DNA of 64,000 nt from Tardiphaga sp. (lineage in GTDB: Bacteria; Pseudomonadota; Alphaproteobacteria; Rhizobiales; Xanthobacteraceae): the NCBI RefSeq assembly GCF_028290495.1, contig NZ_JAQGJT010000151.1, positions 33,168-97,167 of the forward strand. Direction: 5' to 3'. The notes under the pieces are model-generated. The model was not told the origin of the DNA. It made no database searches and was given only the letters and a program-made list of their open reading frames with translations. Below, in pieces: positions 42,467 through 47,768 of this stretch. Made by a program: the position numbers and the translations under genes. Within the stretch, counting starts at the first letter, position 1. Each line of letters opens with the position of its first letter.

Positions 42467-42475
42467 TCGCGGGTG

Positions 42476-42813
42476 TCAGACCGCGCCGCGTCCGACGCCC
42501 TCATACACAAACCCCGCCGCCGCCATTTCTTCCGGCCGGTAGATGTTGCGCAGGTCGACCACGATCGGCTGCTTCATCGCCAGTTTCAGGCGCGACAGGT
42601 CAAGCGCGCGGAACTGAACCCATTCGGTGACGATCACCACCGCGTCGGCGCCCTCGGCGCAGTCATAGGCGTCCGTGCAATAGGTGATCTCGGGCAGCTC
42701 GCGTTTCGCCGCCTCCATGCCGACCGGATCGAAGGCGCGCACATGGGCGCCCATGTCGAGCAGGCCGGTGACGAACGGGATTAACGGCGCTTCGCGCATG
42801 TCGTTTGTGTCGG
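42476..42813 (-). pseudogene. Displaced 3' fragment of ugd (UDP-glucose 6-dehydrogenase)
   Basis: Translates to TDTNDMREAPLIPFVTGLLDMGAHVRAFDPVGMEAAKRELPEITYC...GVGRGAV, about 109 residues matching the C-terminus of the intact Ugd at 46343-47653; homology stops abruptly upstream of TDTND. Confidence 0.92.
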
Positions 42814-42887
42814 TGCCGCAATTGAGTAATTCAACTAAAAGTAGCGAAAATTGCAAACTGTCGTACAACTGAGGCGAGGAGAATCAC

Positions 42888-44597
42888 ATGTATTCCGCCG
42901 CGCTCTCCGATGTCGAAATCATCTCCCGCTGTCAGTCTGGAGCTTTACTCGATGACATCGACCGCTTCGATATCGATGGAATCGAGGCTTCGCTTCTCGA
43001 TCGCTCCGTTTCTCTTCACAATGCTGGCCAGATCGACTTGCTTGCTCTAACGCAAACCGCGCAGTTCAATTCACTCTCCACGTCTGAATTTTTTGTAAGA
43101 CAGGACTTTTTCTGCAAGGCGATTCCTCGGCTGCAGACTCAAGCGCTTCTGTTGATGCAAGCGGTGAAGGCTTTGGTCGTGAGGGGTGGTGCCGATTTAA
43201 TGGCGAACCGACCCTATGAAGCGTTTCGCGACTGGTGTGCTGCCGATCGCACTCGATCCGATGCAATAATCGCCGCAGCTGAAGCCGGCGACGTTCAAGC
43301 CTCCGCCTTTGTCACCTTCGCGTTTACAGCCTTGGGCGATGCGACGTTGGCGCGTTCGTTCGTTGAGAAACACTCCGACGAGAGGCGGTTATCAGCGATG
43401 TTCGCTCTTGGCCGCATTAAACCAGTCGACGTGGTAGATGCCGAAGACAGCATTAGCGTTTTGTTGCCATTTGTCGATGCTGCTTATGATGAAACCCCGC
43501 GATACAATGCTCTAATGTCGCTGCTTAATATCTGTTGTCAATATCTTGATTTGGCCGCAGTCTATCTACCAAAGGCGATCGTTGCAGCAACGGTATCGCC
43601 GACGCCCGGTCTGCAGTTCAATCTAGCGCGAGCCCTCTGGCTACACGCTAAGCTCTTCGATCGTTCCTCTATAAAGTACATGTTGGACGCGTTGAAGACG
43701 GTCGACCCGGCGCTAGGGGGCGTAGTAAATGAAGTCGACCAGGCATTAAAAACGCTGCTAGAAACTCCAAATGGAGATCTGGCTCTACATTTTCTCTGTG
43801 AAATCCTCGCGCGTGATGACGGTTTTGAGCTGAAACAATTCAAGAGTGTAAGGCACGATTTGGCAAGCGGCGATCGGGATCGCCTGTTTAGGCTACTGGT
43901 ACGTTGGCTTAGCACCGACAACTCTAATTTGGGCGTAGCTGCTCAGCAGATTGTGACTGCTGGCGAGCATGCCGCTCCATTCCAAAACACCACAGGTGAT
44001 CTCGGATTGAACGGAGCGGATCACATTTTTCTCGCTTACAAAACACTAGGATGGCTGTTTCTTAACGATGTCGTTGCCGCCTCCATACTTGTTGCTTGTC
44101 TACGTGGGTGTGACCGAGCAACAGCAAAAATCATCGGAAGTTTGCTGTTCGATCCGTTGTTATTGAACTACGGCGGAAAGGCGTTCGAGTACCTAAAGAC
44201 TATCAAGAATGGTGACTTAGCCCACGGTCCAGTCAAGGCTGCGCTTAAAGCTGCAGCCGCCTATGCTAAGGGTCTTGAAATAGACCAGCCGATCAAGGAG
44301 TTGCGCCCCTCCGAGTATCAGCGCAGCGTTGAGCGGCGGCACGCGCATGATGTAATGAGAAAAATCCGAAAAGACGCCGAGAAACATTCGGTATTATTCA
44401 ATCTGGTGCACCGCTCCGTTCTTCTATACGGGCGTCGCTCTATCACCTATGTACAGGAGCCGGGCAGAAAACGGCGTCCTGTAAGTATGGACCTGCATTC
44501 CTTCAGCCATTCCTTCGAGCTACCAAGGTGTGAGGTCATCGATCCAGTTGGCCTAAGTGTAATGCTTCTTACCCTTCGGAGCGTAAGGCGCAAATGA
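42888..44597 (+). CDS. Uncharacterised 569-aa predominantly helical protein, first gene of low-GC cassette
   Basis: Long ORF with no competing ORFs, GAGGAGA RBS upstream, 4-bp ATGA overlap with next gene; no family recognised. Confidence 0.88.
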   Translation: MYSAALSDVEIISRCQSGALLDDIDRFDIDGIEASLLDRSVSLHNAGQIDLLALTQTAQFNSLSTSEFFVRQDFFCKAIPRLQTQALLLMQAVKALVVRGGADLMANRPYEAFRDWCAADRTRSDAIIAAAEAGDVQASAFVTFAFTALGDATLARSFVEKHSDERRLSAMFALGRIKPVDVVDAEDSISVLLPFVDAAYDETPRYNALMSLLNICCQYLDLAAVYLPKAIVAATVSPTPGLQFNLARALWLHAKLFDRSSIKYMLDALKTVDPALGGVVNEVDQALKTLLETPNGDLALHFLCEILARDDGFELKQFKSVRHDLASGDRDRLFRLLVRWLSTDNSNLGVAAQQIVTAGEHAAPFQNTTGDLGLNGADHIFLAYKTLGWLFLNDVVAASILVACLRGCDRATAKIIGSLLFDPLLLNYGGKAFEYLKTIKNGDLAHGPVKAALKAAAAYAKGLEIDQPIKELRPSEYQRSVERRHAHDVMRKIRKDAEKHSVLFNLVHRSVLLYGRRSITYVQEPGRKRRPVSMDLHSFSHSFELPRCEVIDPVGLSVMLLTLRSVRRK

Positions 44598-46336
44598 AAC
44601 TCCTAATTCGCGACTATGTGGCGTCCCTCAAAGAGCGCGAAGAGCTTGATGCCATTTTGCCAGATCTCCTGAGCGAACTCGGCTTTAACGTAATTTCTCG
44701 CCCAGGGCGTGGTACTGCCCAACGCGGTGTCGATGTTGCTGCAGTTGGTAAGGACGCCAACGGCAAGAAAAAGCTATATTTGTTTACTGTAAAGCCTGGC
44801 GATCTGACGCGCCAGGAATGGGATGGTAATTCCCAAAAAGTGCGTTCTTCGCTCAATGAAATTATTGATGAATACATTCCCGTCCGGATACCGGCTCCAT
44901 ATCAGAGCCTGAAGATTGTGATCGTTCTTTGCTTTGGTGGGGACGTTCATGAAAGTGCTCGCTCGCTACTATCCCAGTTCACTAAGCGGCATACCAAAGG
45001 AAAGATTTCGTTCGAAGAGTGGAATGGAGATAAAATTGCGGAACTGCTCCTTACCGGAGTTTTAAGGGAAGAGTTGCTACCCAAGCCGCTGCGGTCGAGT
45101 TTCCAGAAGGCCGTCGCGATGGTCGATCAGCCTGAGATTTCTTACGAGCATTTTGCGCGACTGCTTAAGGCTCTAAGAACTGGCTTCAAGACAGAGAAGG
45201 GAGCCGTAAGAGCCGCGCGACAAATGTACATTTGTCTTTGGGTGCTGTTTGTCTGGGCCCGCGATATTGACAACCTTGACGCACCCTATCGCAGTAGCGA
45301 ATTGGTGCTGCTTAATTTATGGGAAATGGTCAAACCCTTCATCGACAAAAGAACTGCGAATGCGAGAGCCGTCGTTACCGTCGTCCAGCATGCCATCAAC
45401 CTCCACATTCAGATTGGTGCGCTGTTGATGGACAAAAAAATTCTGCCGTATGTTGGTCGCCGTCATACTCTATCAGTTGCGGTAGTTACCCGCACATCAG
45501 TTGATGTAAATCTTAAAATGTTCGACATGTTGGGTCGGCTGGCTATGACAGGGCATTGGATGCTCTGGGCTGGCTCCCTCGGCCGTCCGACGGATCCCAA
45601 GTTGCAAGCTGCTCTGGACGGACTGGTCAATGCCGGCATGGAGATGATCAACAATAATCCCGTACTGTTCTTGCCGCTTCTAGATGAGCAGGCGATTGAA
45701 GTGGGGCTGTTCTTGATGTTTGCCGTACGCAGTGGTGCGTCCAACCGCGATATCCACGCTTGGCTTCAGGAGATGGCTCAAAGGCTTGACTTAGCGGTGC
45801 GCTCGAGCGGCCGATATCCATGCAGATTCACGGACTATCAGGATCTGATTGATCATCCAAAAAACTCAACCAAAGAATATCGCGAGGACGCCTTGCAGGG
45901 TAGTGTTCTTATTCCACTTCTGGCTGCCTGGCTCGCCGCTTTCAAGGACCGTAAATCGCTAGACCTGCTTACTGCTCTAAAGGTGGGTGGTTTGCAGCAT
46001 TGCACTCTGCAACTTTGGCTTCCGGAGAAGGAAAGCGAAGATTATCTGTATCTGAACGATGATAGCCATGGTGCCGCACTGGTCGATCTTCCGCTTGCTG
46101 GGGATGGAAGTGAGCTACTGCAAACGATTTCCGAAGCCTGCCAATCCAGCGAAGGTTTTGCCGCCCTGAGCGCGAACAAATCTGGCTATTGGCCGGTGGT
46201 GCTAACAGCCTGTCGACATTATCGGTTGCCGGTCCCGCCGCAATTTTGGATCGCGTCTCTGATCGATCCCACGCCAGCCACTCCGCTTACTGTTGAAGGT
46301 ACATCAAAGTTAGAATCTGAGAGCACCGACTCTTGA
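44594..46336 (+). CDS. 580-aa protein with N-terminal PD-(D/E)XK/Mrr-like nuclease-type domain and helical C-terminus
   Basis: LPDLLSELGFNVISRPGRGTAQRGVDVAAVGKDANGKKKLYLFTVKPGDL (GVDV...TVK) and ISFEEWNGDKIAELLL resemble restriction-endonuclease-fold domains; the E/Q of (E/Q)xK appears to be T. Confidence 0.75.
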   Translation: MKLLIRDYVASLKEREELDAILPDLLSELGFNVISRPGRGTAQRGVDVAAVGKDANGKKKLYLFTVKPGDLTRQEWDGNSQKVRSSLNEIIDEYIPVRIPAPYQSLKIVIVLCFGGDVHESARSLLSQFTKRHTKGKISFEEWNGDKIAELLLTGVLREELLPKPLRSSFQKAVAMVDQPEISYEHFARLLKALRTGFKTEKGAVRAARQMYICLWVLFVWARDIDNLDAPYRSSELVLLNLWEMVKPFIDKRTANARAVVTVVQHAINLHIQIGALLMDKKILPYVGRRHTLSVAVVTRTSVDVNLKMFDMLGRLAMTGHWMLWAGSLGRPTDPKLQAALDGLVNAGMEMINNNPVLFLPLLDEQAIEVGLFLMFAVRSGASNRDIHAWLQEMAQRLDLAVRSSGRYPCRFTDYQDLIDHPKNSTKEYREDALQGSVLIPLLAAWLAAFKDRKSLDLLTALKVGGLQHCTLQLWLPEKESEDYLYLNDDSHGAALVDLPLAGDGSELLQTISEACQSSEGFAALSANKSGYWPVVLTACRHYRLPVPPQFWIASLIDPTPATPLTVEGTSKLESESTDS

Positions 46337-46342
46337 TCGATG

Positions 46343-47653
46343 TCACACCTTCCCGCGTCCGACGCCTTCATAGATAAATCCGGCGGTGGCCATTTCTTCC
46401 GGCCGGTAGATGTTGCGCAGGTCGATCACGATCGGCTGCTTCATCGCCAGTTTCAGGCGCGACAGGTCGAGCGCGCGGAACTGAACCCATTCGGTGACGA
46501 TCACCACCGCGTCGGCGCCCTCGGCGCAGTCATAGGCGTCATCGCAATAGGTGATCTCGGGCAGCTCGCGTTTCGCCGCCTCCATGCCGACCGGATCGAA
46601 GGCGCGCACATGGGCGCCCATGTCGAGCAGGCCGGTGACCAGCGGGATCGACGGGGCCTCGCGCATGTCGTCGGTGTCCGGCTTGAAGGTGAGGCCGAGC
46701 ACCGCGACGGTCTTGCCGCGGATATTGCCGCCCAGCGCATGCGAGACCTTGCGCGCCATCGCGCGCTTGCGGTTGTCGTTGACCCCCAGCACGGCCTCGA
46801 CGATGCGCAGGGGTGCGTCGTGGTCGAGCGCGATCTTGACCAGCGCGCGGGTGTCCTTGGGAAAGCACGAGCCGCCGAAGCCGGGACCAGCGTGCAAAAA
46901 CTTCGAGCCGATGCGGTTGTCCATACCGATGCCGCGGGCGACGTCCTGCACGTCGGCGCCGACCTTTTCGGCGAGATCGGCGATCTCGTTGATGAAGGTG
47001 ATCTTGGTGGCGAGGAAGGCGTTGGCGGCGTATTTGATCAGTTCGGCGGTGCGCCGCGCGGTGTACATCACCGGCGCCTGGTTCAGCGACAGCGGCCGGT
47101 AGATCTCGCCGATCGCCTTGCGGGCGCGCTCGTCGGAGGTGCCGACCACGATGCGGTCGGGAAACTTGAAGTCGCGGATCGCTGCACCCTCGCGCAGGAA
47201 TTCCGGATTGGAGGCGACCGCGACATCGGCCGCCGGATTGGCCTCCAGGATCAGCCGCTCGACCTCGTCGCCGGTGCCGACCGGGACGGTCGACTTGGTG
47301 ATGACGACAGTGAAGCCCTTCAGCACGGCGGCGATCTCGCGCGCGGCGGCATAGACATAAGACAGGTCGGCATGGCCGTCGCCGCGCCGCGACGGCGTGC
47401 CAACGGCGATGAACACAGCGTCGGCCTCAGCCACGGGGCCGGTGAGGTCGGTGGTAAAATCCAGCCGGCCGGCCTTCACATTTGCGGCGACCAGCGCGTC
47501 CAGGCCGGGCTCGAAGATCGGGATCTCGCCGCGGTGCAGGGCGTCGATCTTGCTGGCGTCCTTGTCGACGCAGGTGACGTAATGTCCGAAGTCGGCAAAG
47601 CAGGCGCCGGACACCAGGCCGACATAGCCGGTGCCAATCATCGCGATACGCAT
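46343..47653 (-). CDS. ugd: UDP-glucose 6-dehydrogenase
   Basis: MRIAMIGTGYVGLVSGACFADFGHYVTCVD..., GPGFGGSCFPKDTRAL active-site motif. Confidence 0.96.
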   Translation of the reverse strand: MRIAMIGTGYVGLVSGACFADFGHYVTCVDKDASKIDALHRGEIPIFEPGLDALVAANVKAGRLDFTTDLTGPVAEADAVFIAVGTPSRRGDGHADLSYVYAAAREIAAVLKGFTVVITKSTVPVGTGDEVERLILEANPAADVAVASNPEFLREGAAIRDFKFPDRIVVGTSDERARKAIGEIYRPLSLNQAPVMYTARRTAELIKYAANAFLATKITFINEIADLAEKVGADVQDVARGIGMDNRIGSKFLHAGPGFGGSCFPKDTRALVKIALDHDAPLRIVEAVLGVNDNRKRAMARKVSHALGGNIRGKTVAVLGLTFKPDTDDMREAPSIPLVTGLLDMGAHVRAFDPVGMEAAKRELPEITYCDDAYDCAEGADAVVIVTEWVQFRALDLSRLKLAMKQPIVIDLRNIYRPEEMATAGFIYEGVGRGKV

Positions 47654-47768
47654 GGAAAAACCTGTGTCTTGAGAGTGCGGGCAGGGTCGTTGCGTTGGGT
47701 CATAGTCATAGCAGATGTGGAAGACTCGCACACGACGGTGTGGGCCCAAATCAGGCTGGATATCATTG

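What the first reader, a model, noticed from the sequence alone, without database searches (positions are those of the whole stretch)
42888..46336. Candidate undescribed defense (or toxin-like) operon: 569-aa helical protein plus PD-(D/E)XK-like 580-aa protein
Sequence: the genes overlap by ATGA (44594-44597), implying translational coupling and a functional pair. The second protein's N-terminus (about 44620-45130) has a restriction-endonuclease-fold pattern: helix ending SELGF, then GVDVAAVGKD, then KKLYLFTVK, then a downstream EEWNGDKIAELL. Established knowledge: PD-(D/E)XK/Mrr-type domains are frequent effectors in anti-phage systems, often paired with a large helical sensor protein. Inference: the first protein is a helical sensor/scaffold and the second an effector. 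I recognise neither as part of a named system.
Basis: partly seen in the sequence, partly recalled or inferred. Interest (0 to 1): 0.88.

Follow-up and report, generated by a model that had tools for sequence, protein, structure and literature searches.

The report
Olokun anti-phage gene pair (oloA-oloB)
The two-gene cassette is real but not undescribed: it is a full-length, horizontally acquired copy of the already named bacterial anti-phage system Olokun, whose second protein probably carries an unusual nuclease-like domain and whose mechanism is still unknown.

Summary
In detail: two same-strand genes, 569 and 580 codons, overlap by ATGA at 44594-44597, and the quoted N-terminal motifs are there. 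The claim 'no named system' does not hold. PADLOC identifies the pair, nearly full length, as OloA (E 1.4e-84) and OloB (E 1.2e-194) of Olokun. OloA lies next to OloB in 80 of 83 related genome and viral loci; relatives also occur on plasmids and in 14 of 5,426 E. coli genomes. OloA is modelled as a HEAT/ARM-like solenoid. OloB residues 1-157 are modelled with a PD-(D/E)XK-like topology, followed by helices. Asp47 and Lys67 are invariant in 77 relatives, but the usual acidic or Gln residue two before the Lys is Ser/Cys/Thr in 76, so catalysis is plausible and unproven. The cassette is foreign (third-position GC 0.53 against about 0.85) and wedged into the end of ugd: the complete ugd abuts oloB, and a displaced 3' fragment of ugd remains on the far side. 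Similar displaced ugd ends occur in three other species of the genus. Best reading: an ordinary new member of Olokun. Interest is modest and lies in the variant active site and the ugd insertion pattern.

The parts
42888..44597 (+). oloA: 569-aa helical protein; residues about 8-465 HEAT/ARM-like alpha-solenoid, then lower-confidence helices and a C-terminal beta hairpin
   Evidence: PADLOC OloA PDLC03925 E 1.4e-84, residues 32-568; AlphaFold2 mean pLDDT 90.1; ARM/HEAT hits in PDB sequences E 7.5e-13 and Foldseek
44594..46336 (+). oloB: 580-aa protein, N-terminal nuclease-like domain plus helical C-terminal region
   Evidence: PADLOC OloB PDLC03926 E 1.2e-194, residues 1-553; AlphaFold2 mean pLDDT 87.9
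44594..45064 (+). OloB residues 1-157: modelled alpha-alpha-beta-beta-beta-alpha-beta-alpha-beta-alpha, PD-(D/E)XK-like topology
   Evidence: secondary structure of the model; weak profile match to Mrr_cat in the right register
44732..44734 (+). codon of OloB Asp47 of the GVD motif
   Evidence: D in 77 of 77 homologs
44786..44794 (+). codons of OloB Thr65-Val66-Lys67: the SxK-type variant of the (D/E/Q)xK motif
   Evidence: K in 77 of 77; position 65 is S 65, C 6, T 5, V 1
44594..44597 (+). ATGA overlap of oloA stop and oloB start
   Evidence: the same 4-nt overlap in 51 related loci
42813..42887 (+). AT-rich leader of oloA between the end of the ugd homology and the start codon; probably holds the promoter (inference, no consensus site found)
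   Evidence: sequence; promoter scan found none on the + strand
42476..42812 (-). displaced native 3' end of ugd, truncated at its 5' side
   Evidence: PF03720 match; 300-nt direct repeat with 46341-46640 at 94%; its final codons match the ugd end of the closest relative G017
46343..47749 (-). complete ugd (UDP-glucose 6-dehydrogenase), convergent with oloB, 6 nt between the two genes; its last about 60 nt differ from close relatives
   Evidence: PF03721/PF00984/PF03720; alignment of ugd ends

Best explanation
The cassette is an intact, horizontally acquired Olokun anti-phage system. Shown here: gene content, order and overlap, full-length family match, foreign composition, and conservation of the putative catalytic D and K. 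Inferred: OloA, a HEAT/ARM-like solenoid, acts as scaffold or sensor that binds OloB and recognises an infection-specific ligand; OloB is then released or activated to cut nucleic acid through its N-terminal PD-(D/E)XK-like domain, with Asp47 and Lys67 in the active site and another carboxylate (candidates Glu14, Glu17, Glu89) in place of the missing acidic residue at position 65. The cassette most likely entered next to ugd on DNA that carried a related ugd 3' end, by homologous recombination within ugd on one side and non-homologous joining on the other, leaving the native ugd end as a fragment. My confidence is 0.97 for 'is Olokun', about 0.6 for 'OloB is an active nuclease effector' and about 0.5 for the entry route; the value given is for the joint core claim, Olokun pair with OloB as the nucleic-acid-cutting effector.
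For: PADLOC OloA and OloB near full-length matches. Same pair and order in 80 of 83 related loci, in E. coli and on plasmids. The E. coli pair matches the same profiles (OloA E 7.8e-181, OloB E 2.4e-249). AlphaFold2 models. D47, K67, R73, W76, Q81, E14 and D19 invariant in 77 homologs. Profile-profile match of OloB 1-165 to Mrr_cat, P 4.8e-4, with GVD aligned to GVDG. GC and third-position GC shift. ugd end duplication with native and incoming ends told apart. Only carrier among 300 sampled genomes of its family.
Against: No activity was tested. The residue two before Lys67 is never D, E or Q in 77 homologs. Pfam finds no nuclease in any of 74 members; Foldseek on the whole model found no nuclease, its matches being to helical repeats; the Mrr_cat profile match is weak (probability 32%; one control segment reached P 0.017). 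PADLOC's two models also hit an apparently unrelated pair in G282, so the name should not rest on the E-value alone. No integrase or transposase lies at the cassette, so the entry route is inferred.
Confidence: 0.6

Rival explanations
1. OloB's N-terminal domain is a degenerate nuclease fold that only binds nucleic acid (or OloA), and the large helical region of OloB or OloA carries the effector function.
For: The acidic residue two before Lys67 is replaced by S/C/T in all but one of 77 sequences (V in that one) and by Ile in the Klebsiella plasmid variant. Conservation in OloB is spread along the whole protein, including invariant W221, N227, W243, N306, N355, P361, D364, Q473 and W475.
Against: D47 and K67 are both strictly invariant, more than a mere binding fold would need. 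SxK active sites with a migrated Glu are known in enzymes such as Cfr10I and NgoMIV (from memory, not tested here).
Confidence: 0.28
2. The pair is a genuinely new system that only resembles Olokun.
Against: Near full-length matches for both proteins, same gene order and overlap, and the window pair falls inside one alignable family with the E. coli pair.
Confidence: 0.03
3. Toxin-antitoxin pair with no specific anti-phage role.
For: Two overlapping genes, one with a nuclease-like domain; mobile distribution.
Against: Both proteins are large (569 and 580 aa), the first is a solenoid unlike known antitoxins, and the family is a named anti-phage system.
Confidence: 0.05
4. On the insertion only: the ugd duplication arose from a site-specific integrative element that carried a replacement ugd end and has since lost its integrase.
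For: A complete gene on one side and a displaced 3' end on the other is the pattern left by integrases that use a gene's 3' end.
Against: Breakpoints of the displaced ugd ends differ among G000, G003, G008 and G012, which speaks against one fixed crossover site; no integrase in the cassette.
Confidence: 0.25

Closest known systems
Olokun anti-phage system, OloA + OloB (Millman et al. 2022, Cell Host Microbe, as cited in PMC10855318 and PMC10121019)
   Same: Both proteins match nearly full length, same order, overlapping genes
   Different: Nothing of substance; sequence is divergent from the E. coli pair (OloA 24%, OloB 40% identity), which is within the spread of this family
Mrr-like PD-(D/E)XK nucleases (Pfam Mrr_cat, PF04471)
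   Same: Order of secondary structure, GVD motif, strand ending in Lys, and a W-N-G-D block at the end of the domain that resembles the I-D-G block of Mrr_cat
   Different: S/C/T instead of Q (or D/E) two before the Lys; no significant Pfam match
Hachiman HamAB (abstract of PMC12278908)
   Same: Two-gene system in which a protein of formerly unknown function proved to be the effector nuclease, held in check by its partner
   Different: HamB is a helicase; OloA is a helical solenoid with no ATPase match, so this is an analogy only
Short-OloA Olokun variant on Klebsiella plasmids (L194, L195)
   Same: OloB homolog (26% identity) preceded by a 4-nt overlapping OloA-related gene
   Different: OloA is only 300 aa, matching profile positions 360-589 of 596, and OloB has Ile at position 65

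Membership tests
Olokun | OloA homolog, near full length | tested here: met
   PDLC03925 E 1.4e-84, residues 32-568 of 569 to 42-594 of 596
Olokun | OloB homolog, near full length | tested here: met
   PDLC03926 E 1.2e-194, residues 1-553 to 1-551 of 556
Olokun | two adjacent same-strand genes, oloA then oloB | tested here: met
Olokun | direct homology to the experimentally tested proteins | not testable with these tools
   the tested sequences and the original paper are not held; link is through PADLOC models and the E. coli pair
Olokun | protection against phage | not testable with these tools
   needs a plaque assay
PD-(D/E)XK / Mrr-like nuclease domain in OloB | core alpha-beta-beta-beta-alpha-beta topology | tested here: met
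   AlphaFold2 model, residues 18-143; no structural superposition could be made
PD-(D/E)XK / Mrr-like nuclease domain in OloB | conserved Asp at the start of the second strand and Lys at the end of the third | tested here: met
   D47 and K67 in 77 of 77; strands 48-53 and 59-67
PD-(D/E)XK / Mrr-like nuclease domain in OloB | D, E or Q two residues before the Lys | tested here: not met
   S 65, C 6, T 5, V 1 of 77
PD-(D/E)XK / Mrr-like nuclease domain in OloB | significant sequence or profile homology to a nuclease family | tested here: inconclusive
   no Pfam match; hhalign to Mrr_cat P 4.8e-4, probability 32%
HEAT/ARM-like solenoid in OloA | tandem helical repeats | tested here: met
   HEAT_2 hits in 19 of 71 members at E<=1, best 2.3e-4; ARM/HEAT chains in the PDB; model

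The most novel reading that the evidence does not exclude
OloB uses a PD-(D/E)XK-type site in which the second metal-binding acid has moved elsewhere (SxK type), a form not assigned to any defence effector known to me, switched on by a HEAT-like solenoid sensor; and the 3' end of ugd is a recurrent capture site for small cargo in this genus.
Probability: 0.35. Interest if true: 0.5.

Novelty: new member of a known kind. Interest (0 to 1): 0.25.

Why it matters
Olokun is still listed as uncharacterised (PMC12926258, PMC12592470). The 77-sequence alignment and the models name the exact residues to mutate (D47, K67, E14, E17, E89 in OloB) and a domain boundary (about 157/160), which makes the mechanism directly testable. 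The Klebsiella variant with a 300-aa OloA hints at which part of OloA may be dispensable. The ugd pattern suggests how a defence cassette can arrive without an integrase of its own.

Tried and rejected
Pfam, NCBIfam and PHROGs scans of both proteins: nothing useful. PDB sequence search with the OloB profile: nothing. Foldseek of the whole OloB model: only helical repeats, rmsd too large to mean anything. Apparent neighbourhood enrichment of 'mad8' near Olokun: rejected, the model is a promiscuous one that rings in all 14 control genomes. First Mrr_cat profile comparison was spoiled by wrong-strand translations and redone. Idea that the G282 pair (L075) is a distant Olokun with a swapped nuclease: not supported, my profiles do not find it. 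Idea that ugd travels with Olokun generally: rejected, no ugd near any of the other Olokun loci. No other defence gene next to the cassette in the window. Megablast of a Citrobacter pair to E. coli found nothing; the distant search did.

Full report
Check of the observation. The cassette has GC of about 0.50 in a region of about 0.65, and third-position GC of 0.53-0.54 against 0.82-0.89 for ugd, metK and the adenosylhomocysteinase-like gene nearby. It is therefore most likely foreign DNA in a core chromosomal neighbourhood.

Identity. PADLOC names the first protein OloA (E 1.4e-84) and the second OloB (E 1.2e-194), each over nearly its whole length. These are the two proteins of Olokun. The library papers attribute Olokun to Millman et al. 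2022 (PMC10121019, PMC10855318; the original is not held). PMC10855318 files Olokun under nuclease activity in a table, citing that paper. PMC12926258 and PMC12592470 describe it as of unknown mechanism or not thoroughly characterised. No Pfam or NCBIfam model matches, which fits the annotation of such genes as hypothetical proteins, including in E. coli.

Distribution. A scan of one genome per species gave 79 loci, IMG/VR 4, plasmids 34, GenBank phages none, and E. coli 14 of 5,426 genomes by a distant DNA search. In the E. coli example the pair follows prophage tail-fibre genes, and in G081 (L072) it sits among prophage-like genes (gene identities there are my reading of the translations). 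A Phaeobacter conjugative plasmid carries it between transfer genes. OloA was detected next to OloB in 80 of 83 loci; the exceptions are cut or broken. The window genome is the only carrier among 300 sampled genomes of its family, which include 17 other members of its genus.

Structure. OloA, predicted with 71 homologs, has mean pLDDT 90.1: a helical solenoid to about residue 465, then lower-confidence helices and a beta hairpin. Its profile hits repeat proteins of the ARM and HEAT kind (E 7.5e-13 to a designed fusion, and natural ones such as coatomer gamma at 3.5e-10), and Foldseek agrees on the class, though with low TM-scores. OloB, predicted with 74 homologs, has mean pLDDT 87.9: residues 1-157 are two helices, three strands, helix, strand, helix, strand, helix, and the rest is mostly helical. 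The first part is the order expected of PD-(D/E)XK domains.

Putative active site. In 77 OloB sequences D47 and K67 never vary; E14, R15, D19, R73, W76, Q81 and D146 do not vary either. The residue two before the lysine, which should be D, E or Q, is S in 65, C in 6, T in 5 and V in 1. In a divergent Klebsiella plasmid version it is I. So either another acid completes a metal site, as in some restriction enzymes with an SxK motif (from memory), or the domain binds without cutting. Profile comparison with 24 Mrr_cat domains gave P 4.8e-4 with the GVD motifs in register, but a probability of only 32%; six control segments gave 0.017 to 0.41. I treat the fold as likely and catalysis as open.

Insertion at ugd. 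The cassette lies between a complete ugd (46343-47749, minus strand) and a second copy of its last about 335 nt (42476-42812); the repeat finder reports a 300-nt direct repeat at 94%. In the closest relative, G017, ugd is followed after an 874-nt low-GC spacer by the same downstream genes that follow the fragment in the window. The last codons of the fragment match the G017 ugd end, while the last about 60 nt of the complete copy differ. So the fragment is most likely the native gene end, and the complete gene received its end with the cassette. Displaced ugd ends are also present in G003, G008 and G012, with different breakpoints; in G003 and G012 the cargo between is different. This argues for a recurrent capture site that does not rely on one fixed crossover point. 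No ugd lies near Olokun in the other genomes examined, so the link is local to this genus.

Mechanism. The most likely scheme is a solenoid sensor or scaffold (OloA) bound to a nuclease-like effector (OloB), kept together by translational coupling. Only the anatomy is shown; sensing, activation and target are inferred. The short-OloA version in Klebsiella (300 aa, matching only the C-terminal 40% of the OloA profile) suggests that the C-terminal part of OloA is what OloB needs, and that the solenoid adds recognition. That is inference.

Caution on the library. The PADLOC OloA and OloB models also match a pair in G282 (L075: 862 and 486 aa; E 2.3e-45 and 8e-43), which profiles built from the family found here do not recognise for OloB and barely for OloA. 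The models may mix two families. This does not touch the window pair, which aligns end to end with the main family.

Verdict. A confirmed observation with a partly right interpretation: a defence pair, but an already named one. Novelty: a new member of a known kind.

Noticed in passing
window 42474-42812 and 46341-46678; G003:C332, G008:C4, G012:C1 7221958-7259272: The 3' end of ugd is duplicated around the cassette, and displaced or internal ugd fragments with differing breakpoints occur in three other species of the genus around other cargo (G012 has four fragments plus the complete gene). The ugd 3' end looks like a recurrent capture site.
   Followed up: partly
L042 11975-12848 (G017): At the same ugd-downstream site G017 has an 874-nt low-GC insert whose reading frames look like a frame-shifted PIN-domain (toxin-like) gene, judged by eye only.
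   Followed up: no
L194 3096-5686, L195 3096-5674 (Klebsiella plasmids): Divergent Olokun with a 300-aa OloA in place of about 570 aa, still with a 4-nt overlap; 19 of the 34 plasmid hits are from Klebsiella.
   Followed up: partly
L075 6491-10484 (G282): A pair of 862 and 486 aa hit by PADLOC's OloA and OloB models but not convincingly by profiles of the family found here; the second has a C-terminal D...ELK pattern like a standard PD-(D/E)XK nuclease. The PADLOC models may be mixed, or this is a separate HEAT-plus-nuclease pair.
   Followed up: partly
L117 and L122 (Pseudomonas marginalis PgKB35): Two divergent Olokun pairs on one contig, about 50 kb apart.
   Followed up: no
L196 724-5740 (Tolypothrix plasmid): An oloA-like gene (679 aa) and oloB are separated by two pieces of an ISAs1 transposase gene.
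   Followed up: no
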